A stretch of DNA of 64,000 nucleotides, from assembly GCF_000429645.1 (NCBI RefSeq), contig NZ_AUCG01000021.1, positions 186,001 through 250,000 of the forward strand, in the 5' to 3' direction. The stretch is from Niveispirillum irakense DSM 11586 (GTDB lineage: Bacteria > Pseudomonadota > Alphaproteobacteria > Azospirillales > Azospirillaceae). Below are positions 3,718 to 13,729 of this stretch, in pieces; within the stretch, counting starts at the first letter, position 1, and each line of letters starts with the position of its first letter. Made by a program: the position numbers and the translations under genes. The notes beneath the pieces were generated by a model. That model searched no databases, was not told the origin of the DNA, and was given only the letters and a program-made list of their open reading frames with translations.

Positions 3718-3764
3718 CGGCCGGCTTTTGTAAAAGGCCGACACGGGTGACGAGGGAGGATGGT

Positions 3765-5681
3765 ATGCGGCGCGCGCTGAAATGGGGTGCCGGATTGTTC
3801 GCCGGCCTTATGCTGATGTTGATCCTGGTCGTTCTTCTGTTCGATTGGGGACGGCTCGCCCCTTGGGCCGCGAACCGCCTGTCGGCCATGAGTGGCCGGG
3901 AAGTGACCATCGAAAAGCTGGATATTGACTGGTCTTGGCAGCCCTTGATCACGGTTGAAGGGCTGACGGTGGCCAATGCGGCCTGGGCCAAAGAACCCTT
4001 GATGGCAGAGGTGGAGCGGGTGCGCATGCGCGTTTCCCTTCCCGCCCTGCTGCGGTTGCGCTGGGAACTGCCGGAACTGGCAATCATCCGCCCGCGGGTG
4101 CGGCTGGAGCAGAATGAAGAAGGAGTGGCGAACTGGGATTTCACGGCGGGCAAACTGGCCGCAGAGGCCACCACGCCTGATGACCGTACCGAAATGCCCC
4201 TGATCGGCGATTTCCTGATCGAGGAAGGGGCCCTGTCTTATCGCGACCGGCGCAAAGGCATTGATTTTCGCAGCCGGATCAGCAACGTCGCGGCCCGCGA
4301 CACGGATCGCAAGGTGCGGGTTGAAGGCGATGGCACCATTGAACGCAAGCCCTTCACGGTCACGCTGGTTGCCGGGTCCTTGATGAGCCTGCGCGCGGCT
4401 GAGGATCCTTATCCCGTGCGCCTTGACCTTGCCGCCGGCGGCACAAAGCTGGCGCTGGATGGCACGATGCGCGATCCGATCCGGCTGGAGGGGGCGGACT
4501 TCCAACTCTCCCTGAGCGGTCCGGATCTGGCGGAAATCTTCCCCATTTTCGGCATCCCCACGCCCACGACCGCGCCTTACAGCCTTTCCGGCCGCATGCA
4601 GCGGGATGAAGGGCGATGGCGGGTTGATGATCTGAAGGGGGAAGTGGGCGAAAGTGATTTGTCCGGCAGCGTCGCCATTGACCCGCGGGAGGAAATACCC
4701 CTGATCCAGGCCAATCTTCTGTCCCGCAAGTTGCGCCTGATTGATCTTGGCGGCTTGATCGGCCTGGACCCTGGCGAGGAAGACCCGTCGGCATCCGTTG
4801 CCCCGCCGGGAAAAGTCCTGCCTGATGTGCCGGTGGAATTGGCGCGGCTGCGTGCTGCCGATATGGAAGTGCAATTTACCGGACAGAATGTCGTGGTGCC
4901 GGACCTGCCTCTGCGGGAAGTGGATTTCCACCTGATCCTGAAGGGTGGGCAGGCCCGGCTGGAACCGCTGCGCTTTAAGGCAGAGATCGGGGAGATTGCG
5001 GGTACCGTGGTGCTGGATGGGCGCCAAGATGTGCCGATCGGGAATTTCGATCTGGGCATTCGTAATCTGGGCCTGCGGCCCTTTTTCAAAGGCACCCGGT
5101 TTGAGCCGGAAACGGAGGGTGCGTTGGCTGGCCGTATCCAATTGCAGGGGACGGGCAGTTCCCTTTCAGACATCCTGGGAACATCGGACGGGGAAGCGGT
5201 CCTGGTGATGGAGAATGGCACGCTCAGCCACCTGCTGGTGGAACTGGCGGGGCTGGATGCGGCGGAGGCCCTGGCCAATCTGATCGCCGGCGACGATGCC
5301 ATCAACGTGCGCTGCTTTGTCAGCGATTTCGATGTGAAGAAAGGCATGATGCAGTCGCGTACCCTGGTGCTGGACACCACCGATACGAACATAAAAGGCA
5401 AGCTGGCGCTGGATCTGGGTCAAGAGCGGCTGGAGGGACGGCTGCAACCGCAGCCCAAGGATTTCAGCCCCCTGTCGGCGCGTGTGCCCATCACCCTGGG
5501 GGGCACATTCAAGGAACCGGCCGTTGGGGTGGAAGGCGGAAAACTGGCCCTGAAGGGTGGGGCGGCGGTGGCATTGGGCGTCTTGCTGACGCCGCTGGCT
5601 GCCATCGTGCCCTTCCTGGATGCCGGTGGTGGGGAGGACAGCCCTTGCCGCAGTCTGATCAACCAGGCCCAGGCAAAGTGA
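3765..5681 (+). CDS. AsmA family protein
   Basis: A 638-residue protein with one N-terminal membrane helix (about residues 7-27, AGLFAGLMLMLILVVLLF) followed by a large, beta-rich periplasmic region. The segment after the helix, WAANRLSAMSGREVTIEKLDIDW, is the classic AsmA N-terminal signature, and the C-terminal third (LDTTDTNIKGKLALDLGQERLEG) matches the AsmA_2/DUF748 type repeat. AsmA-like proteins are now viewed as bridge-like lipid carriers between inner and outer membrane. The ATG at 3765 is preceded by GAGGGAGGA; a GTG at 3747 is possible but lies upstream of this ribosome site. Convergent with the response regulator, whose stop is 9 bases away. Confidence 0.85.
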   Translation: MRRALKWGAGLFAGLMLMLILVVLLFDWGRLAPWAANRLSAMSGREVTIEKLDIDWSWQPLITVEGLTVANAAWAKEPLMAEVERVRMRVSLPALLRLRWELPELAIIRPRVRLEQNEEGVANWDFTAGKLAAEATTPDDRTEMPLIGDFLIEEGALSYRDRRKGIDFRSRISNVAARDTDRKVRVEGDGTIERKPFTVTLVAGSLMSLRAAEDPYPVRLDLAAGGTKLALDGTMRDPIRLEGADFQLSLSGPDLAEIFPIFGIPTPTTAPYSLSGRMQRDEGRWRVDDLKGEVGESDLSGSVAIDPREEIPLIQANLLSRKLRLIDLGGLIGLDPGEEDPSASVAPPGKVLPDVPVELARLRAADMEVQFTGQNVVVPDLPLREVDFHLILKGGQARLEPLRFKAEIGEIAGTVVLDGRQDVPIGNFDLGIRNLGLRPFFKGTRFEPETEGALAGRIQLQGTGSSLSDILGTSDGEAVLVMENGTLSHLLVELAGLDAAEALANLIAGDDAINVRCFVSDFDVKKGMMQSRTLVLDTTDTNIKGKLALDLGQERLEGRLQPQPKDFSPLSARVPITLGGTFKEPAVGVEGGKLALKGGAAVALGVLLTPLAAIVPFLDAGGGEDSPCRSLINQAQAK

Positions 5682-5690
5682 AAGCGTCTG

Positions 5691-6704
5691 TCAGGGAATG
5701 GCCGTGTTGGGTGTGACTGTTGCAAACTGCCGGTAACGCTGGAAGCGGGCCGGGGGCGGATATTTGATCAGTCCCCGCAGGTGTGGCGGTGCCGGGATAA
5801 AGCTGCAGCGCCATTGCGACTGAAGCCGGATGCAAGGCACCAGTTCCACCTGCCCCGGCACGCCGGCATTGTCGGTCGATGGCAAAGGCTGCAATTCCCC
5901 GCGGGCAACCGCTGCCGCCCCTTCCTGGGTGTAACCGGCACCGCCGGCGGCCTCCATGATGCCACAGACATCCTCTTCCGCCTGGGCCAGCAACAGCCAG
6001 CCCTCGTGCTGGGCGTCGAAACAAAGCAGGCCTGAAGGGCGCAGGGAAAGGTAATGCTCGACAATGCCATGGATGGCAAACTGTTCGGTCACATATCGTT
6101 CAAAAAAAGGATCATGAAGAAAGGACCGGGCATCGAAAAAGGGCAATAAGGGCCGCGTCAGTTTGCGGAAATAATGCTGGGGGGCGTCTGCGATGGCAGT
6201 GCGGAGCTGATCGCGGATGGTGGGATCATGCTTCATGAAAAACAGGTCGATCAGTCCTTCATTGAAGGCGTGGATCGCCACCCGTTCATCGGCCTTGCCG
6301 GTCAGCAGAATGCGCTTGGCAGCGGGTGATTCCAGCCCCCGGAAGAAGGAAAGCCCATCCATCCCCGGCATGTCATAATCGGCAATGATGGCGCTGACAT
6401 CCTGATGCCGCGTCGGATCCCCGGCGACATCCACGATCCGTGAGCAATGCAGACGGACGCCCCGATCCGTCCAATCGCCCGGCAACTCCGCCAGATCGGA
6501 TTCCTGCAACGGCGCCAGCAAATGGTCGATCCGGGCCCGCCCATCCCTGTTGACCAGGGCGGAAAGCGCGGTGGCTGGATGTTCAAAGGCGTCACACCGC
6601 AGCGCGCGGCCCAAGGAAAAGGCCAGACTCTCCAGGAAATGCGCATCATCGTCAACGGCAGCAACCGTTGTTGGAAAGCTGTAAGGAGGGATCCTGAAGG
6701 TCAT
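5691..6704 (-). CDS. LqsR-like response regulator, no DNA-binding domain
   Basis: 337 residues. The N-terminal half is a receiver domain: acidic pocket VDDD at 18-20, phosphoacceptor Asp109 in ADYDMPGMDG, conserved Thr135 in LLTGK and Lys158 in FFMKHD. The Asp lies near position 109 rather than the usual 50-55 because about 50 extra residues sit between the first acidic strand and the phosphorylated strand. To my knowledge this matches Legionella LqsR (about 340 residues, Asp108). The C-terminal 160 residues (from LTRPLLPFFDARSFL) contain no helix-turn-helix, GGDEF, EAL or HD-GYP motif and no family I know. It lies 13 bases downstream of the kinase gene in the same direction, so the two form an operon divergent from the autoinducer synthase. 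Confidence 0.75.
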   Translation of the reverse strand: MTFRIPPYSFPTTVAAVDDDAHFLESLAFSLGRALRCDAFEHPATALSALVNRDGRARIDHLLAPLQESDLAELPGDWTDRGVRLHCSRIVDVAGDPTRHQDVSAIIADYDMPGMDGLSFFRGLESPAAKRILLTGKADERVAIHAFNEGLIDLFFMKHDPTIRDQLRTAIADAPQHYFRKLTRPLLPFFDARSFLHDPFFERYVTEQFAIHGIVEHYLSLRPSGLLCFDAQHEGWLLLAQAEEDVCGIMEAAGGAGYTQEGAAAVARGELQPLPSTDNAGVPGQVELVPCIRLQSQWRCSFIPAPPHLRGLIKYPPPARFQRYRQFATVTPNTAIP

Positions 6705-6717
6705 TTCGCCATAGGTC

Positions 6718-8022
6718 TCAATAGCCTGTGCCGGCTGGGAAGCTTATCCGAAACTGGGTGAATGATCCATGTAAAGACGTAACATTGATTGTGCCACCAA
6801 TATCTTCTACCGCCTTTTTGCAGAAAGCCAAGCCCAATCCTACGCCGGCGGTGCCCCCCCACATCGTGGCAAAAGGGCGGAAAAGTTGCGCCAGCCGATG
6901 CTGGGCAATGCCTATTCCTGTATCACGAACGACGAGGTGATGTTCGTCGCGGCCCTTTTCAAGGCGGATGACCACCTCACCTTTCCCAGCTTCTGCGGTG
7001 GCACGAAGGGCGTTGCGCAGCAGGTTATGGATCACCTGGGTCAGCATGACCGGCGAGGCGTTGACCATGAAATCATCTTCCAGCGCCAGGATCACGCGCC
7101 GTCGCTCCTCTCCCCGGAAGGGGAAGCGGTTCATCGCATCGGTAACAGTGACGGCCATGGAGACGGCGCGCATATCTTCCGTTTGCCGCCGTGGGCCTGA
7201 CAGGTTGGTCAGCATCATGTTCAAGACGCTGTCGGCGAACAGGCCGTGCCCTTCGATTCTCCGCATCGCCAGCAGCAGGGCATCGGCTTCTGCACGGGCG
7301 GCCGGGTCCAGTGAAGTTTCCGCCAGCAATTGGGCCATCCGTTCCCGCACCGTTTCTGCATCCAGGCGCACGCCCAGAAGGGGGGTGCGCATCTCATGCG
7401 CGATGGTGCCGCCGACCGCGCGGGCGGATTGGATACGGTCATCTGCCCGGGCCAGCGCCTCGGCATAGTTGAATATCGTTCCGGCGGATAAAACGAAAAG
7501 GTATATGGGCCAGCCGTCAATAAAGCCTTGGGGCGGGTTTTGACCTGTTACAATAAAATAAGAAATAATCCCGATCAGCGTGCCGAAAATGGCCGATAGC
7601 ATGAAGGCAATAGCATCCATAACCAGCGCTAAATATAAAAATGAAGCAATAAATGAGGTTTGCCAAGCAATATTTGCTCCATTCATTAATGACATATATG
7701 AAAAAAATGACGGCAATGCCATTGTACAAAATATAATACCATAGGATGGCATCATATTTCGTATTTTCTGCGGAAGCCATTTTTCGATAATGAAAGGTAT
7801 CGCAGCGACTGCGCCGAGAAGCCGTAAAGTTAAATTCTCATACGTTTGTGGGTAGATATAAGTCCATATCACCCAATAGGCGGGAAATCCAAAAAATCCA
7901 ATAACGCCGAGAAGTTGAAGTTTCGTACGTACATGTTCATACTGTATGCGGCGTTGTCTGGCCGCACGCCGATGAAGGTCCCGCAATAGCGTGTATATAT
8001 CCACGAGTGACCTTTCAGACAT
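6718..8022 (-). CDS. membrane histidine kinase, alpha-hydroxyketone receptor (LqsS/CqsS-like)
   Basis: 434 residues from ATG 8022 (a TTG at 8034 is the alternative; no strong ribosome site for either). Residues 36-185 form about six hydrophobic helices with short loops, the topology of CqsS and LqsS sensors. The catalytic part has an H-box at His209 (GTIAHEMRTPLL), an N-box (IHNLLRNAL), G1 (VVRDTGIGIA) and G2 (GTAGVGLGLAFCKKAVEDIGG). It ends there: unlike Vibrio CqsS there is no receiver domain, which is the Legionella LqsS arrangement and explains the separate regulator downstream. The divergent neighbour is a CqsA-type synthase, so the ligand is presumably its alpha-hydroxyketone product. 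Bases 7621-7800 within the membrane domain are only about 32% GC, with TTA, TCA, ATA and GGA codons unlike the rest of the gene. Confidence 0.82.
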   Translation of the reverse strand: MSERSLVDIYTLLRDLHRRAARQRRIQYEHVRTKLQLLGVIGFFGFPAYWVIWTYIYPQTYENLTLRLLGAVAAIPFIIEKWLPQKIRNMMPSYGIIFCTMALPSFFSYMSLMNGANIAWQTSFIASFLYLALVMDAIAFMLSAIFGTLIGIISYFIVTGQNPPQGFIDGWPIYLFVLSAGTIFNYAEALARADDRIQSARAVGGTIAHEMRTPLLGVRLDAETVRERMAQLLAETSLDPAARAEADALLLAMRRIEGHGLFADSVLNMMLTNLSGPRRQTEDMRAVSMAVTVTDAMNRFPFRGEERRRVILALEDDFMVNASPVMLTQVIHNLLRNALRATAEAGKGEVVIRLEKGRDEHHLVVRDTGIGIAQHRLAQLFRPFATMWGGTAGVGLGLAFCKKAVEDIGGTINVTSLHGSFTQFRISFPAGTGY

Positions 8023-8050
8023 AAATGCAAACAAATTCGACTTAAAGTTC

Positions 8051-8096
8051 CTGGCGCGGTTGTTGGGAGGCGCATTTTCCTCCCCCGCGTTTCCAG
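8051..8096 (+). promoter_or_regulatory. stem-loop in synthase leader overlapping the Shine-Dalgarno site
   Basis: Three consecutive complementary blocks fold this leader on itself: CTGG 8051-8054 with CCAG 8093-8096, CGCGG 8055-8059 with CCGCG 8085-8089, and GGGAGG 8065-8070 with CCTCCC 8079-8084, enclosing an 8-base loop, with bulges of 5 and 3 bases. The last arm overlaps the ribosome binding site AGGAG at 8095-8099 of the gene starting at 8106. Whether the leader is transcribed depends on the unmapped promoter. Confidence 0.5.
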
Positions 8097-8105
8097 GAGC
8101 TTATC

Positions 8106-9374
8106 ATGAGCGTTGCAAACACGGCACTCTTCACCCGTACCCATTTCCCCGCCTTCGCGCCGACCGACCCGGCCATCCTTGATGCCCGGATCCGGCAGGC
8201 CTATGCGGAGCGGGACAATCTGCATCGGTTGGACCGGCTGTTGAACGGGTCTGTTCCCGGCGCCGATGCCATTTTGATGCGGACCAACGATTATCTGGGG
8301 CTGGCGGCCCATCCCCGGATCATCGGGGCGGAGATATCCGCGCTGGAGGAAGGCGGGCATGGCGACAGCCTGTCCCGCATTTTCGCCCATCGCCGCGAAG
8401 ACCGGCACCGCGCGTTCGAGCGGCGTCTGGCCACCTTGATGAAGGCGGAAGATGCGGTGCTGTGCATGTCTGGATATTGCGCCAATGTCGGGCTGATCCA
8501 GACCATCGCGCAGCCCGATATGCCCATATATCTGGACATGCTGGCCCATGCTTCCCTGTGGGAGGGGGTGAAGAGTGCCGGCGCTGTCGCGCGGCCCTTC
8601 CGGCATAATGATCCCGGCCATCTTGAACGGCAGATCGCCGCCTATGGGCCGGGGGTGATTGCCATTGATGCGCTGTACAGCACATCGGGCCATATCGCGC
8701 CGCTGGCTGCTTTTTGTGATGTGGCGGAACGGACTGGCTGTGTGCTGGTGGTGGATGAAACCCATTCCTTCGGCGCCCATGGCACGGATGGGGCGGGGTT
8801 GGTGGAAGCGGCCGGCCTGACGGGGCGGGTGCATTTCCGCACCCTGGGCCTGTCCAAGGCCGTGGCCAGCCGGGGCGGGGCTATCGTCTGCTCGGCCCGC
8901 AACGCCGATTTTTTCCGGTATGAATCCATGCCCATGATTTTCTCCACCTCCGTGCTGGCGCATGAGGTGGCGGGCTTCGAGGCGGCACTGGATGTCATCC
9001 GGGATGAGCCGTGGCGGCGCGCACGGCTGCACGCCAACCATGCAAGGCTGCGCGATGGGCTGGATGATCTGGGGTACAATGTTGATATCTCCGACAGCCA
9101 GATCATCGCGCTGGAGGCCGGCACCGACGATGCCATCATCGCCTTCCGCGACGCGGTGGAGCGGGAGGGGATTTTCGGGTCCGTCTTCTGCGCCCCGGCC
9201 ACACCGCGCAACCGGGCCATCCTGCGCTTCACTGTTCATTGCAACTTGAGTGATGCGGATATCAGGGGTGTGTTGTCTGCGCTGGAGCGGGTGCGCGATG
9301 AGGTGGATGTCGCCGCCTGGGGCTCCACCCGGCGGCGGCGGGGACGGAACGGCCGTTCGGTGATGGCCGCCTGA
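8106..9374 (+). CDS. cqsA: alpha-hydroxyketone autoinducer synthase (CqsA/LqsA family)
   Basis: 422 residues, a PLP-dependent alpha-oxoamine synthase-fold enzyme. CqsA condenses an acyl-CoA with S-adenosylmethionine or an aminobutyrate-type substrate to give CAI-1 precursors; Legionella LqsA makes LAI-1. Features: NDYLGLAAHPRI near residue 61, the family's substrate-entry motif; GHGDSLSRIF; Asp217 in VVDETHSFGAHG, which contacts the PLP nitrogen; and PLP lysine Lys251 in TLGLSKAVASRGG. The combination DETHSFG plus LSKAxASRGG, together with ALYSTSGHIAPL, fits CqsA/LqsA better than KBL, BioF or ALAS. The adjacent divergent kinase and LqsR-like regulator strongly support the quorum-sensing role. 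Start ATG 8106 follows CAGGAGC with six bases of spacing. The acyl chain length of the product cannot be read from sequence. Confidence 0.88.
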   Translation: MSVANTALFTRTHFPAFAPTDPAILDARIRQAYAERDNLHRLDRLLNGSVPGADAILMRTNDYLGLAAHPRIIGAEISALEEGGHGDSLSRIFAHRREDRHRAFERRLATLMKAEDAVLCMSGYCANVGLIQTIAQPDMPIYLDMLAHASLWEGVKSAGAVARPFRHNDPGHLERQIAAYGPGVIAIDALYSTSGHIAPLAAFCDVAERTGCVLVVDETHSFGAHGTDGAGLVEAAGLTGRVHFRTLGLSKAVASRGGAIVCSARNADFFRYESMPMIFSTSVLAHEVAGFEAALDVIRDEPWRRARLHANHARLRDGLDDLGYNVDISDSQIIALEAGTDDAIIAFRDAVEREGIFGSVFCAPATPRNRAILRFTVHCNLSDADIRGVLSALERVRDEVDVAAWGSTRRRRGRNGRSVMAA

Positions 9375-9490
9375 TCCTGGGAATAAACAGTAACATGGTG
9401 CCCGGACATCCGCTCCGGGCACCAAATTCCCGCCCTTGTGTTATCAGCAGGTCTGTTCCGACATTCCACGTTGCTGGAGGTCCGATATCC

Positions 9491-11062
9491 ATGAAGCGCG
9501 CCATTCCGTTTCTTGCCGCCGCCTTGTTCCTGTGTGGGTTCGACCATGCACCGCCCTCCAGTCCCGCTGATCTGTATGGTGCGCTTTTCGTGGCGGTGCA
9601 GGAACAGCGCCTGTTCACCGACGGCAAGACTTTTGTGGATGCCGTGCCAAAGCGGCCAGCCGCCGCCATTATGGCCGATTATCATCGGGTGAAGCCGCAG
9701 GATACCCAGGCGCTGCGGGCGTTTGTGGAAACCAATTTCGCCCTGCCGGATGCTGTGGCGACCGAGGCTCCGCCCCCGCATGAACCCCGCGCCCTGCTGG
9801 CCCATATCGCGGCCCTGTGGCCGCAACTCACCCGATCGCCGTTGGACCCGCCGGCCGGCTCCTCCGCCCTGGGGCTGCCGGAACCCTATGTTGTGCCCGG
9901 CGGCCGGTTCCGGGAGATTTATTACTGGGACAGCTACTTCACCATGTTGGGTCTGATCGCCGACGGCCGCCAGGATCTGGTGGACAGCATGCTGACCGGT
10001 TTTGAAAGCCTGATCGAACGGTACGGCCATATCCCTAATGGGACGCGCACTTATTATCTCAGCCGGTCACAGCCGCCTTTCTTTGGCTTGATGCTGGATC
10101 TGGCGGGACCGGGGGACGCCGCCCGCGATGCCCGCCATCTGGCGGCGTTGAAGCGGGAATATGATTATTGGATGGACCGGTCCGGCTGCGCGGAAATCAT
10201 CATCGCTTGCCGCCGTACCCTGCGCATGCCCGATGGCAGCGTGCTGAACCGCTATTGGGATGACCGCGACAGCCCGCGCGATGAATCCTATGCCGAGGAT
10301 GTGGAGACGGCGGCGCAGAGCGACCGGCCCGCCGGCATCGTCTATCGCGACCTGCGGGCAGCAGCGGAAAGCGGCTGGGATTTCAGCGCCCGCTGGCTCG
10401 CCCATCCTGGCCATCTCCATACCATCCGCACCACCCGCATCGTGCCCGTGGACCTGAACAGCCTGATCTGGACCATGGAAAAGGCCATTGCCCGCCGGTG
10501 TCAGGCACTGGCGGACAGCGCCTGTGCCGCTGATTTCACCAGCAAGGCGGATGCCCGCGCCCAGGCTGTGCATCAATATCTGTGGGACGGGCGAGAGAAC
10601 CGCTTCCAGGATTGGGATATGGATAGCGGCCAGGGCACCGGTTTTCTGTCCGCTGCCGCGCTTTATCCCCTGTTTGTCGGGTTGGCGACGCCGGAACAGG
10701 CCGCCAGCATGGCCAAGGTGACGGCGGATCACCTGCTGGCGCCCGGCGGCCTGCGGACCAGTCTGCGCTTCACCCATCAGCAATGGGATGCGCCCAATGG
10801 CTGGCCGCCGCTGCAATGGGTCGCCATTGACGGGCTGGCCCGCTATGGCCATGAGGGATTGGCAAAGGACATTGCCGCCCGCTGGGTCGGCACCGTGGAC
10901 CGCGCCTATCGGGAGACGGGACGGCTGCTGGAAAAATATAATGTGGAAGAAAGGCTGCCCGGCGGCGGTGGAGAATATCCGCTTCAAGACGGGTTCGGCT
11001 GGACCAATGGTGTGACTCGCGCCCTGATCGCCCGCTATCCGGACCTGAATCCCGACCGGTGA
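9491..11062 (+). CDS. treA: periplasmic alpha,alpha-trehalase (GH37)
   Basis: 523 residues. Hydrolyses trehalose to two glucose, probably in the periplasm: residues 1-20 form a hydrophobic signal peptide, with a likely cleavage after an AxA-like DHA. The first GH37 signature appears as PGGRFREIYYWDSYF and the second as QQWDAPNGWPPLQW, with the terminal GGGGEYPLQDGFGWTNG block typical of the family; the acid/base and nucleophile regions (SGWDFSARW; EKYNVEE) are intact. The ATG at 9491 follows a GGAGG about ten bases upstream; the frame continues to 9395 but the extra residues are not trehalase-like. With treZ-treY 9 kb away, the cell can both make trehalose and recover it from outside. Confidence 0.93.
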   Translation: MKRAIPFLAAALFLCGFDHAPPSSPADLYGALFVAVQEQRLFTDGKTFVDAVPKRPAAAIMADYHRVKPQDTQALRAFVETNFALPDAVATEAPPPHEPRALLAHIAALWPQLTRSPLDPPAGSSALGLPEPYVVPGGRFREIYYWDSYFTMLGLIADGRQDLVDSMLTGFESLIERYGHIPNGTRTYYLSRSQPPFFGLMLDLAGPGDAARDARHLAALKREYDYWMDRSGCAEIIIACRRTLRMPDGSVLNRYWDDRDSPRDESYAEDVETAAQSDRPAGIVYRDLRAAAESGWDFSARWLAHPGHLHTIRTTRIVPVDLNSLIWTMEKAIARRCQALADSACAADFTSKADARAQAVHQYLWDGRENRFQDWDMDSGQGTGFLSAAALYPLFVGLATPEQAASMAKVTADHLLAPGGLRTSLRFTHQQWDAPNGWPPLQWVAIDGLARYGHEGLAKDIAARWVGTVDRAYRETGRLLEKYNVEERLPGGGGEYPLQDGFGWTNGVTRALIARYPDLNPDR

Positions 11063-11227
11063 AGTGTCGGACAGGCAACCATTTTCGGCGCCATGCGTTT
11101 TTTGCTGCGCTGCGGCAAAATACTGTAACTTGAAGCCCAGGGTGACCCGCGCCCACATTATCCGTCTGTTTTGCGGAGCAGCAGGCCGCCCGCTCCTGAA
11201 GGATCGCCGGCCTGCCGGAGATTATGT

Positions 11228-12427
11228 GTGACTGCCTCATCCCCTGCTGTTTCCCGTCCTGGCCTGGTGCTGCTGGCCCTGGCCATGGGCGGTTTCGCCA
11301 TTGGCACCACCGAATTCGCGGTGATGAGTCTGCTGCCCTATTTCGCGGCTGGCCTTGGCATTGACGAGCCGACAGCCGGCCATGTCATCAGTGCCTATGC
11401 GCTGGGTGTGGTGGTGGGGGCGCCGATTATCGCCGTTCTGGCCGCGCGGCTGTCGCGCCGCACGCTGCTGATCGGGTTGATGGCGATGTTTGCGCTGGCC
11501 AATGTGTTGAGCGCGATGGCGCCCTCCTATGGCTGGATGATGGTCTTCCGCTTCCTGAGCGGGCTGCCCCATGGTGCCTATTTCGGTGTGGCGGCGCTGG
11601 TGGCCGCATCGCTGGTCCCGCCGAACAAGCGGGCGCAGGCGGTGGCGCGGGTGATGCTGGGCCTGACAGTGGCCACCATCATCGGCGTGCCGGTGGCGAA
11701 CTGGATCGGCCAGACAGTGGGTTGGCGCTGGGGCTTTGCCATTGTCGGCGTACTGGCGCTGCTGACTGTCGCCATGGTTTGGCTGTTCGCCCCGTCCGAT
11801 AAGCCGATCCATGGTGCCAGCCCGATGCGGGAACTGGGCGCCCTGCGCCAGCGCCAGGTCTGGCTGACGCTGGGCATCGGGGCTATCGGCTTTGGTGGCA
11901 TGTTCGCTGTCTATACCTATCTCGTCTCCACATTGCTGGAGGTGACGCAGGCGCCGGAAACCATGGTGCCGGTGGTGCTGGCTGTGTTCGGCATCGGCAT
12001 GACGGTGGGCAATCTGGCCTGCGCCTGGGCGGCGGACCGTGCCGTGATGCCGGCGGCGGGCGGTATCCTGCTCTGGAGCGCGGCATCGCTCGCCCTGTTT
12101 CCCTTCGTCGCCCATAATATCTGGGCGGTAACGGCCTGCGTCTTCTTGATCGGCTGCGGCGGGGGCTTGGGCACGGCCCTTCAGACCCGCTTGATGGATG
12201 TGGCCAAGGATGCACAGACCCTGGCGGCAGCGCTGAACCACAGCGCCTTCAATACGGCCAACGCGCTTGGCCCCTGGTTGGGCGGCATGGCGATCGCCGC
12301 CGGCCATGGCTGGACGTCTACCGGCTGGGTCGGCTGCGCGCTGGCGCTGGGCGGTTTTGCCATATGGGTGCTGGCGGTGCTGGATGACCGCCAGCGCCGC
12401 CCCCTTCCAGCGGTCCAGGGCGCCTGA
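11228..12427 (+). CDS. MFS exporter of the AraJ/YdhP type
   Basis: 399 residues with twelve predicted membrane helices. It opens with LVLLALAMGGFAIGTTEFAVMSLLPYFA, the motif of the DHA1 subfamily of sugar or drug efflux permeases, and has the A-loop RRTLLIGLMAMF between helices 2 and 3. GTG 11228 is preferred because CGGAGATTAT precedes it; a TTG at 11171 would add a polar tail before helix 1. The substrate is unknown; close families export arabinose-like sugars, purine ribonucleosides or drugs. It ends three bases from the convergent pectate lyase gene. A second member of the same subfamily lies at 19545-20729. Confidence 0.8.
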   Translation: MTASSPAVSRPGLVLLALAMGGFAIGTTEFAVMSLLPYFAAGLGIDEPTAGHVISAYALGVVVGAPIIAVLAARLSRRTLLIGLMAMFALANVLSAMAPSYGWMMVFRFLSGLPHGAYFGVAALVAASLVPPNKRAQAVARVMLGLTVATIIGVPVANWIGQTVGWRWGFAIVGVLALLTVAMVWLFAPSDKPIHGASPMRELGALRQRQVWLTLGIGAIGFGGMFAVYTYLVSTLLEVTQAPETMVPVVLAVFGIGMTVGNLACAWAADRAVMPAAGGILLWSAASLALFPFVAHNIWAVTACVFLIGCGGGLGTALQTRLMDVAKDAQTLAAALNHSAFNTANALGPWLGGMAIAAGHGWTSTGWVGCALALGGFAIWVLAVLDDRQRRPLPAVQGA

Positions 12428-12430
12428 TCT

Positions 12431-13729
12431 TCAGGACCGTTTCTCCCACTTGGTAAAGGCGCTGAGGGCTTTTTGCGGGCTGGTCGTGTACCAGGCATAC
12501 CCGGTCCGCCGCTCTTGCGAGATACCCATGACATCATCATGGATGGTCTTGTCACGGTCGCCGAAGACCGGCTTGTTGCCGTCCAGGGAGTAGAAGCGCG
12601 ACCAGAGTGGCTTGGCCCCCTGTTCGGTCACCAATTGATAGCCTTGATCGCTTTTGACCCAGGCGCGGTCACGGATGACGCTGGTGTTCAACCATGCGAC
12701 ACCGCCGCGGATGGCCTGCTTCACGGCATCGGATGGGGCCTCGATCTCCATCAGGAACAGCAGGATACGCGCGCTTTCCGTGCTGGAAAGGGCGGCTGGT
12801 TCAAAATTCCGTGCAGATGTGGGGCGCAGGGTCAGGGCATCATGCTGCTGTCCCCATCCCAGGCGTTTGCCGTCCTGAACCACCTGGGTTTCGACGATGC
12901 AATGAATGGCGGCATTGGTGGCTTCCAGGGCGCGTGTGCGGATGGCAGGGGGCACGAAGCCGAACCCATCCCTGCCCGCCGCAATATCGCTCAGCAATTC
13001 CGCCACATGCACCAGCGCATCGTCATTATAGGTAATGGCGTCGTGATAGCCGCCTTCCAGCGGCCAGACCTGGGGCCAGCCGCCATTGGGAAATTGCGAG
13101 GCCAGCAGGTACTCAATACCTTTCAAGGCGGCGTCGCGATAAGGCGCAGCTTCTTCTGGCGCTAGCTGGCTGACAACTTGGGCCAGGAACCGGATTTCCG
13201 TGACCGTGGCGTCATTATCGATGGTTCCGACATAGTGCCAATCCCGGTCGCGGGCCGCGTCCAGATCATTGGAGCCGGATTTGACCTTGGCGACATTCTC
13301 CCCCGTATAATGCTGCCCAGGCAGCCGAAGGGCACCGTCACGGGGCTGGTTCTTGCCCCAGCCGCCGGCGGGGGTCTGGAAACTGACAATCACATCTGCG
13401 ACATGCCGTGCCGCTTTGCTGGTGTACCAGGCCGCCGGTTTATCAAGCGGCATGGTGTCGGCACCTTTCCCCTCTGCCGGGGGCGGTGGCAGGGGCTGGC
13501 CTGGGGCCAGCTCGGCGGCCAGACTGGCCTTATCCCTGGATAATTGGGCCTCTGAACGGGCCAAATATTCCTGCCATGCTGCGCGCTGCGTGTCGGGCAG
13601 GGAGGAGACCCGCGACGGTGTCAGCGCGCTGGCCGCCTCATTCATGCCAATCACGGCGGCAGAGGCGACGGTGGCGGGAATGAGCAGGTTGGAAGCGAAA
13701 AGCGGTATCAACAACGCAATACGTTTCAC
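12431..13729 (-). CDS. pelA: pectate lyase, family PL10
   Basis: 432 residues with a signal peptide ([18 protein letters not shown], cleavage near VASA), so secreted. It cleaves de-esterified polygalacturonate by beta-elimination. PL10 hallmarks: [13 protein letters not shown], an alpha/alpha toroid with repeated NGGWPQVWP and TYNDDALV segments, and the C-terminal [19 protein letters not shown] block, which contains the catalytic arginine in this family. The PL10 family was defined from PelA of Azospirillum irakense, so this gene is both a function call and a hint to the host genus. It probably forms a single-gene unit; about 200 bases upstream, before the next gene's terminator, are available for its promoter. 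Confidence 0.93.

What the first reader, a model, noticed from the sequence alone, without database searches (positions are those of the whole stretch)
5691..9374. Complete alpha-hydroxyketone quorum-sensing module in an alphaproteobacterium
A CqsA/LqsA-type synthase (Lys251, DETHS) is divergent from a receiver-less membrane kinase and an LqsR-like regulator. The order and split kinase/regulator follow the Legionella Lqs design rather than the Vibrio CqsS hybrid design, yet the host appears to be an Azospirillaceae member. The signal produced may differ from CAI-1 and LAI-1. If confirmed it would add a non-acyl-homoserine-lactone language to plant- or soil-associated alphaproteobacteria.
Basis: partly seen in the sequence, partly recalled or inferred. 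Interest (0 to 1): 0.82.

Follow-up and report, generated by a model that had tools for sequence, protein, structure and literature searches.

The report
Alphaproteobacterial hydroxyketone quorum-sensing module
Three neighbouring genes in an alphaproteobacterium look like a complete cell-to-cell signalling kit of a kind best known from Vibrio and Legionella; the kit looks genuine by sequence, but it is a new member of a known kind rather than a new kind.

Summary
Window 5691-9374 carries a CqsA/LqsA-type synthase (lqsA), divergent from a receiver-less membrane kinase (lqsS) and an LqsR-type regulator (lqsR). The synthase passes NCBI's alpha-hydroxyketone (AHK) synthase model (479.8 bits, cut-off 428) and falls in the CqsA clade, apart from BioF-like, ALAS and SPT rows. 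The regulator matches LqsR 6sy9 by sequence and predicted fold. The kinase keeps a PQxYE motif and Ser107 that seven homologous kinases from synthase-less genomes lack or mostly lack.

Two parts of the first interpretation fail. The gene order is not Legionella's: lqsS and lqsR are co-directional and lqsA diverges. An alphaproteobacterial synthase (Rhodomicrobium vannielii) was in print in 2013. Such synthases occur in 8 of 385 sampled alphaproteobacterial genomes, this one included.

Distinctive here: the synthase lineage branches first in the sampled family (the kinase tree does not show this), and it alone has glycine three residues before the PLP lysine. Receptor residues hint at a short tail. 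No chemistry was testable.

Side finding: three genomes encode a synthase fused to an MMPL exporter.

The parts
8106..9374 (+). lqsA/cqsA-type AHK autoinducer synthase, 422 aa; PLP lysine K251 (codon 8856-8858); lineage-specific G248 (codon 8847-8849)
   Evidence: NF005526 479.8 bits over cut-off 428; best solved structure CqsA; in the CqsA clade, 100/100; residues
6718..8022 (-). lqsS-type receiver-less membrane histidine kinase, 434 aa from ATG 8022 (438 aa from TTG 8034); phospho-accepting H209 (codon 7396-7398); six predicted membrane helices
   Evidence: HATPase_c only; homologous to kinases beside other synthases (tblastn; profile); PQTYE, W120, S123, F176; AlphaFold model mean pLDDT 78.3
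5691..6704 (-). lqsR-type response regulator, 337 aa; receiver with phospho-accepting D109 (codon 6378-6380) plus LqsR-type output domain; begins 13 bp after lqsS, probably one operon
   Evidence: 6sy9 LqsR by sequence E 1.6e-29 and by fold E 6.6e-22, TM 0.69/0.75 over 339 columns; invariant D18-D20, D109, T135, K158 in 10 rows
8023..8105 (.). 83-bp divergent region between lqsS (ATG 8022) and lqsA; no JAI-1-type TTGAN6/7TCAA site
   Evidence: sequence; pattern search of the window: 0 matches, 0.98 expected by chance; short inverted repeats only
9396..9424 (.). perfect 11-bp inverted repeat just after lqsA; possible transcription terminator
   Evidence: a consensus match only (4 terminator-like sites in 5500-9700, 3.8 expected in shuffles)

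Best explanation
A working alpha-hydroxyketone quorum-sensing circuit of the Lqs/Jqs type. LqsA condenses a medium-chain acyl-CoA with SAM or an amino acid on PLP to give a CAI-1-like aminoketone or hydroxyketone (inferred from CqsA). The product accumulates with cell density and binds the six-helix sensor of LqsS (inferred from conserved receptor residues). LqsS H209 exchanges phosphate with D109 of LqsR, encoded 13 bp downstream, and LqsR changes gene expression through its LqsR-type output domain (inferred). Shown here: gene identities, domain make-up, conserved catalytic and receptor residues, dN below dS, and the same three-gene arrangement in three genomes of the genus group. Phe at the CqsS-C170 position, with Trp and Ser at 104 and 107, predicts a tail nearer C8 than C12, possibly with an amino or enamine head. 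The regulon is unknown.
For: Synthase: NF005526 over cut-off, CqsA best structure, one clade with CqsA 100/100, K251 kept, 6 of 8 comparable acyl-pocket residues identical (pocket list from a passage of PMC3285556). Kinase: Q and E of the PQxYE-type motif in 28 of 28 synthase-linked kinases, W104 28 of 28, F162 28 of 28, S107 26 of 28 (Thr in 2), all kept in the window. Regulator: LqsR by sequence and fold. lqsS lies next to and upstream of lqsR on the same strand in 18 of 18 complete modules. Window versus G066, dN/dS pairs: lqsA 0.13/0.79, lqsS 0.30/1.75, lqsR 0.35/1.40. Same arrangement in G066 and A. crusticola.
Against: No chemistry or expression evidence. All 3 genus rows have Gly at -3 of the PLP lysine, where 36 of 36 other family rows have Ser and 19 of 19 outgroup rows Ser or Thr, so PLP handling may be altered. 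No curated LqsS/CqsS model named the kinase: its best NCBIfam match is LuxN, 106.9 bits against a cut-off of 1550, and the LqsS profile was built outward from the window kinase itself. dS is near saturation for lqsS and lqsR, and could not be computed for lqsS against A. crusticola. Only 3 of 11 genus genomes carry the synthase. The Jqs promoter motif is absent from the window. LqsS-LqsR pairs also exist without a synthase, so the pair alone does not prove AHK sensing.
Confidence: 0.85

Rival explanations
1. The synthase is an ordinary alpha-oxoamine synthase (BioF, KBL, ALAS or serine palmitoyltransferase) beside an unrelated two-component system.
For: Same superfamily: bioF model 251.8 bits and SPT 244.4 bits, both under their cut-offs. 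Gly at -3 departs from the CqsA pattern.
Against: Only NF005526 of the 14 models listed passes its cut-off. The tree separates 39 CqsA-family rows from 19 outgroup rows at 100/100. The genome has its own SPT and ALAS over cut-off. The neighbours are LqsS and LqsR relatives.
Confidence: 0.03
2. The enzyme makes an aminoketone or hydroxyketone that is not a quorum signal, and the kinase and regulator respond to something else.
For: Other alphaproteobacterial family members occur with no full LqsS/LqsR pair in the stretch fetched (L071, L072, L074-L078), and LqsS-LqsR pairs occur without a synthase.
Against: In the window all three sit together, as in two other genomes of the genus group, and the kinase keeps the PQxYE motif (absent in 7 of 7 synthase-less kinases) and Ser107 (absent in 6 of 7; the seventh, L116, aligns differently). 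W104 does not discriminate: the synthase-less kinases keep it, 7 of 7 and 6 of 7.
Confidence: 0.09
3. A decaying or non-functional acquisition.
For: Patchy (3 of 11 in the genus group); flanking genes not shared between the carriers; GC 0.51-0.52 in the two 1-kb windows from 7001 to 8500 against 0.57-0.64 on either side; altered position -3.
Against: Frames intact in three genomes; dN well below dS in the comparisons that could be computed; catalytic and phosphorylation residues present.
Confidence: 0.03

Closest known systems
Jqs system of Duganella/Janthinobacterium, jqsA-jqsS-jqsR (PMC3566124: one section and passages seen; PMC5080296: passages seen)
   Same: Synthase, kinase and LqsR-type regulator in the order A-S-R in environmental bacteria
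   Different: The JAI-1 promoter motif TTGAN6/7TCAA is not in the window; host class differs; the strand arrangement in Duganella was not seen in the text; no named Duganella or Janthinobacterium sequence was compared
Lqs system of Legionella pneumophila, lqsA, lqsR, hdeD, lqsS (PMC3376566: sections 4.2, 4.3, 5 and legends seen)
   Same: Separate kinase and LqsR; regulator fold matches 6sy9
   Different: No hdeD between lqsS and lqsR, which are co-directional instead of convergent; by the published LqsS residues the window has Trp where LqsS has S111 and Phe at the tail-length position where LqsS has T175/L176, but Ala as LqsS A172
Cqs system of Vibrio (CqsA/CqsS)
   Same: Synthase family, catalytic lysine, most of the acyl pocket, sensor residues W104, S107, F162
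   Different: CqsS is a hybrid kinase with a receiver (PMC3376566 legend); the f203 loci, presumably Vibrio, have kinases of about 680-700 aa and no LqsR; the window kinase has no receiver
Rhodomicrobium vannielii ATCC 17100 synthase YP_004010985 (figure legend in PMC3566124)
   Same: An alphaproteobacterial CqsA/LqsA homologue already in print
   Different: Its sequence was not fetched, so its place relative to the window was not tested

Membership tests
CqsA/LqsA AHK autoinducer synthase | NCBIfam NF005526 above curated cut-off | tested here: met
   479.8 versus 428 bits
CqsA/LqsA AHK autoinducer synthase | Branches with CqsA, not with other alpha-oxoamine synthases | tested here: met
   58-row tree, 39-row clade 100/100 that includes CqsA 2wk8; LqsA itself was not available as a row
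CqsA/LqsA AHK autoinducer synthase | PLP lysine and acyl-chain pocket | tested here: met
   K251 = K236; 6 of 8 comparable pocket residues identical, V32 to L and F257 to Y; H30 lies outside the CqsA segment used
CqsA/LqsA AHK autoinducer synthase | Ser three residues before the PLP lysine (not a published criterion; seen in all other family rows here) | tested here: not met
   Gly in 3 of 3 genus rows; Ser in 36 of 36 others
CqsA/LqsA AHK autoinducer synthase | Makes an alpha-hydroxyketone or its amino/enamine form | not testable with these tools
   needs chemistry
LqsS/CqsS AHK receptor kinase | Six membrane helices, then DHp/HATPase with phospho-accepting His | tested here: met
   AlphaFold helices fit six spans, six hydropathy peaks, H209 invariant in 9 rows, HATPase_c; no HisKA match by Pfam
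LqsS/CqsS AHK receptor kinase | Receptor residues W104, S107, F162 and the PQxYE-type loop | tested here: met
LqsS/CqsS AHK receptor kinase | Named by a curated family model | tested here: inconclusive
   best NCBIfam match LuxN far under its cut-off; the table shows the best 25 of 77 families
LqsS/CqsS AHK receptor kinase | Binds an AHK | not testable with these tools
   needs a binding or kinase assay
LqsR response regulator | Receiver plus LqsR output domain | tested here: met
   6sy9 first of 1327 fold matches, E 6.6e-22, 339 columns; the next, a 135-residue chain, E 3.0e-7. Model pLDDT is under 50 at 55-57, 63-85, 278-283 and 314-337. D109 aligned with LqsR
Legionella-type lqs cluster | lqsR and lqsS convergent with hdeD between them | tested here: not met
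   lqsS and lqsR co-directional and 13 bp apart, lqsA divergent
BioF/KBL/ALAS/SPT | Passes the model cut-off of one of these | tested here: not met
   bioF 251.8/426, SPT 244.4/500, KBL 204.5/460, ALAS 189.4/339

The most novel reading that the evidence does not exclude
The genus carries the earliest-branching sampled lineage of AHK synthases. It has rebuilt the PLP phosphate site (Ser to Gly at -3) and pairs it with a receptor that mixes Vibrio-type (Trp104), Legionella-type (Ala166) and V. harveyi-type (Phe170) residues, and so uses its own short-chain amino- or hydroxyketone dialect, distinct from CAI-1 and LAI-1.
Probability: 0.25. Interest if true: 0.55.

Novelty: new member of a known kind. 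Interest (0 to 1): 0.4.

Why it matters
It puts a complete synthase-receptor-regulator AHK circuit in an alphaproteobacterial lineage and gives a short, testable prediction about its signal. The comparison also yields a candidate signature (PQxYE plus Ser107) that separates synthase-linked LqsS kinases from homologues in genomes without a synthase, which may help decide when an LqsS homologue is likely to sense an AHK.

Tried and rejected
Jqs promoter motif TTGAN6/7TCAA: 0 in the window, 0.98 expected; no regulon inferred. Flanking genes as targets: in G066 and G067 the AsmA-like gene lies on another contig than the synthase, and no trehalase match at E 1e-100 was found there, so no claim. AHL synthase PF00765 in the own genome: nothing found, but none of the 14 control genomes rang either, so the result says nothing. 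LqsS paralogues in the own genome were not searched for. L. pneumophila LqsA as a tree row: not found; a search with the LqsR fragment hit 1 of 78 genomes of another class, at 33% identity. Naming the host: megablast of window 20000-44000 against plasmids gave Niveispirillum cyanobacteriorum at 83% over 1.2 kb at best, so no genus is claimed. L116 is placed differently at W104 and S107 by two alignments and is counted as unsure. Literature: searches, each showing only its top rows; the library lacks most subscription papers, so no claim of being unpublished is absolute.

Rows dropped: L031, L034 and L035 of the 32 loci were not put in the tree; L070 was treated as a copy of L017. Several fetched stretches end near the synthase (L009, L015, L017/L070), so a missing neighbour there means little.
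Full report
OBSERVATION. The three genes are at the stated coordinates with intact frames. lqsA is 8106-9374 on +; lqsS ends at 6718 and starts at ATG 8022 (or TTG 8034) on -; lqsR is 5691-6704 on -, 13 bp after lqsS. lqsA and lqsS start 83 bp apart (from ATG 8022) and diverge.

SYNTHASE. Of the 14 NCBIfam models listed for it, only NF005526 (alpha-hydroxyketone-type quorum-sensing autoinducer synthase) is over its curated cut-off, 479.8 against 428 bits. The best solved relatives are CqsA entries, E 8.9e-83, ahead of an ALAS at 3.4e-45. In a 58-row maximum-likelihood tree, 39 CqsA-family rows form one side of a 100/100 branch against 19 other alpha-oxoamine synthases. That outgroup includes this genome's own SPT and ALAS, over cut-off; it holds a BioF-like row but no row confirmed as BioF or KBL. 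The window row groups with G066 (100/100) and Aerophototrophica crusticola (100/99). The other 36 family rows, CqsA included, form their own group (96/90), so this genus branches first in the sample. Several outgroup branches are long, so the order at the base is not certain. Identity to V. cholerae CqsA is 41.7% over 345 columns.

ACTIVE SITE. K251 aligns with CqsA K236. Of the CqsA acyl-pocket residues listed in PMC3285556 (passage seen), F79, I263, F264, C346, P348 and A349 are identical, V32 is Leu and F257 is Tyr; H30 lies outside the segment compared. One position stands out: three residues before the lysine the window, G066 and A. crusticola have Gly, while 36 of 36 other family rows have Ser and 19 of 19 outgroup rows have Ser or Thr. 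In BioF that residue touches the PLP phosphate (recalled, not from a call). The change is shared by the three rows and their frames are intact, so it looks like a lineage trait rather than decay.

KINASE. Pfam finds only HATPase_c and no receiver. No curated LqsS or CqsS model named it; the best NCBIfam match is LuxN, far under its cut-off. Its identity as LqsS rests on homology to kinases beside other synthases (tblastn, for example E 5e-58 to Salinisphaera; a profile grown from the window kinase) and on residues. The AlphaFold model (9 sequences, mean pLDDT 78.3, pTM 0.50) has helices that fit six membrane spans leading into the helix with H209. Using the residue numbers in PMC3376566 and PMC3285556, the window has Trp and Ser at CqsS 104 and 107, Tyr/Phe/Ala at 160/162/166 and Phe at 170. 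In Vibrio, Phe at 170 restricts the receptor to C8 ligands and Trp104 goes with a slight preference for an amino head. Phe at 170 is common (14 of 28 synthase-linked kinases) and is also found in all 7 synthase-less kinases, so the C8 forecast is a lead only.

A CONTROL FOR THE KINASE. A profile of LqsR (alignment A1) matched 12 of 385 alphaproteobacterial genomes at E 1e-15 or better. Eleven are not the window genome. Ten of those are small (0.8-2.6 Mb); the eleventh, G346 (4.5 Mb), matches over the receiver range only. None of the eleven is among the 8 genomes with an NF005526 synthase at E 1e-90 in the class search, also 385 genomes (its full list was not printed). Five of the ten small genomes hold seven LqsS-like kinases beside or within 0.7 kb of LqsR. 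In the alignment these seven lack the PQxYE motif at its place (7 of 7) and Ser107 (6 of 7), while the 28 synthase-linked kinases keep Q and E (28 of 28) and have Ser (26) or Thr (2) at 107. W104 does not discriminate: the seven keep it. L116, one of the seven, aligns differently. By PQxYE and Ser107 the window kinase is of the synthase-linked type.

REGULATOR. By sequence the best solved relative is LqsR 6sy9, E 1.6e-29, over residues 3-246. The AlphaFold model (10 sequences, mean pLDDT 72.5, with weak stretches at 63-85 and 314-337) finds 6sy9 first, E 6.6e-22, TM 0.69/0.75 over 339 columns; the next match is a 135-residue chain at 3.0e-7. D109 aligns with the phospho-accepting Asp of LqsR. 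What the output domain does is not known from these data.

GENE ORDER. Among 37 distinct loci with 38 distinct synthase genes (L070 is a copy of L017), 18 have synthase, LqsS and LqsR, 10 have synthase and LqsS only, and 10 synthase genes have no full LqsS in the stretch fetched. In all 18, lqsS lies next to and upstream of lqsR on the same strand. lqsA diverges from them in 4 (window, G066, A. crusticola, G608), converges on them in 11 and follows them in 3. The Legionella plan has lqsR and lqsS convergent with hdeD between (PMC3376566 section 5); none of the 18 has that strand plan.

DISTRIBUTION. NF005526 at E 1e-90 or better: 3 of 82 genomes of the order, all in the window's genus group, 3 of 11 there; 8 of 385 of the class, 4 of 276 genera; 17 of 398 of the phylum, 16 over the cut-off; each count includes the window genome. 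Of the alphaproteobacterial loci seen here, only this genus group has the A+S+R set. G082 has synthase plus LqsS without LqsR; Tistrella and g177 loci have synthases without a full LqsS. In G066 and G067 the flanking AsmA-like gene is on another contig than the module, and no trehalase match at E 1e-100 was found, so the site is not conserved. No mobility gene was seen among the 7 proteins scanned at 3747-13729.

CONGRUENCE AND SELECTION. The genus forms one group in the kinase tree (SH-aLRT 100) and in the regulator tree (90, not starred). The kinase tree does not repeat the first-branching place of the synthase: there the Comamonadaceae-type kinases split off first and this genus lies inside an unresolved group of 17 (quick trees). 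So the deep position is a property of the synthase tree only. dN is well below dS for the three genes between the window and G066, with dS near saturation for lqsS and lqsR.

LITERATURE. The section of Hornung 2013 seen describes jqsA-jqsS-jqsR and lists R. vannielii ATCC 17100, an alphaproteobacterium, among synthase holders. So the class was not free of AHK synthases in print. Searches for an Azospirillum, Niveispirillum or Rhodospirillaceae AHK system showed none: one search found 0 papers, and the 15 rows listed of 23 and of 49 held none.

VERDICT. An AHK quorum-sensing module by the sequence tests that could be run, in a lineage where these searches showed no earlier report; a new member of a known kind. 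The product, its receptor specificity and the regulon are inferences.

Noticed in passing
L071:8939-12511; L128, L129 (genus g177, alphaproteobacteria): An AHK-type synthase fused to the C-terminus of an MMPL exporter in one ~1190-aa protein, matched near full length in 3 of 15 genomes of the order (G359 itself, G822 87% and G823 85% identity), each beside a second synthase (Pfam run on L071 only). It suggests coupled making and export; no paper in the held library has both CqsA and MMPL. Probably more novel than the finding itself.
   Followed up: partly
L009:2295-5303 (Cellvibrionaceae MAG): A synthase-like domain with the PLP lysine replaced by Asn, fused to NB-ARC and TPR repeats in one 1003-aa protein: perhaps a dead synthase used as a sensor in an NLR-like protein. 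One MAG only.
   Followed up: partly
L112-L123, L125, L126: LqsR homologues, in places paired with LqsS-like kinases and in up to 5 copies, in ten small-genome alphaproteobacteria (0.8-2.6 Mb) not among the synthase holders; the seven kinases examined lack the PQxYE motif, so they may sense something else.
   Followed up: partly
L073:10809-12179 (G082): A synthase-linked LqsS in which the phospho-accepting His is Lys, with a HisKA-type kinase gene on the far side of the synthase.
   Followed up: no
L071:7524-8936: The second synthase ORF of G359 opens in frame with a transposase-domain fragment (DUF772), as if an insertion element sat just upstream.
   Followed up: no
L075 (G339:C4): The contig has the length of Tistrella mobilis plasmid NC_017958.1 and the same synthase position: a synthase on a 1.1-Mb replicon with no LqsS or LqsR in the 19 kb fetched.
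   Followed up: no
L011: A Streptacidiphilus (actinobacterium) synthase over the NF005526 cut-off (517.3 bits) with no LqsS or LqsR in 13 kb.
   Followed up: no
window 9395-9491: The trehalase ORF's first ATG (9395) overlaps the inverted repeat after lqsA; ATG 9491, with a signal-peptide-like N-terminus, looks the likelier start (read).
   Followed up: no
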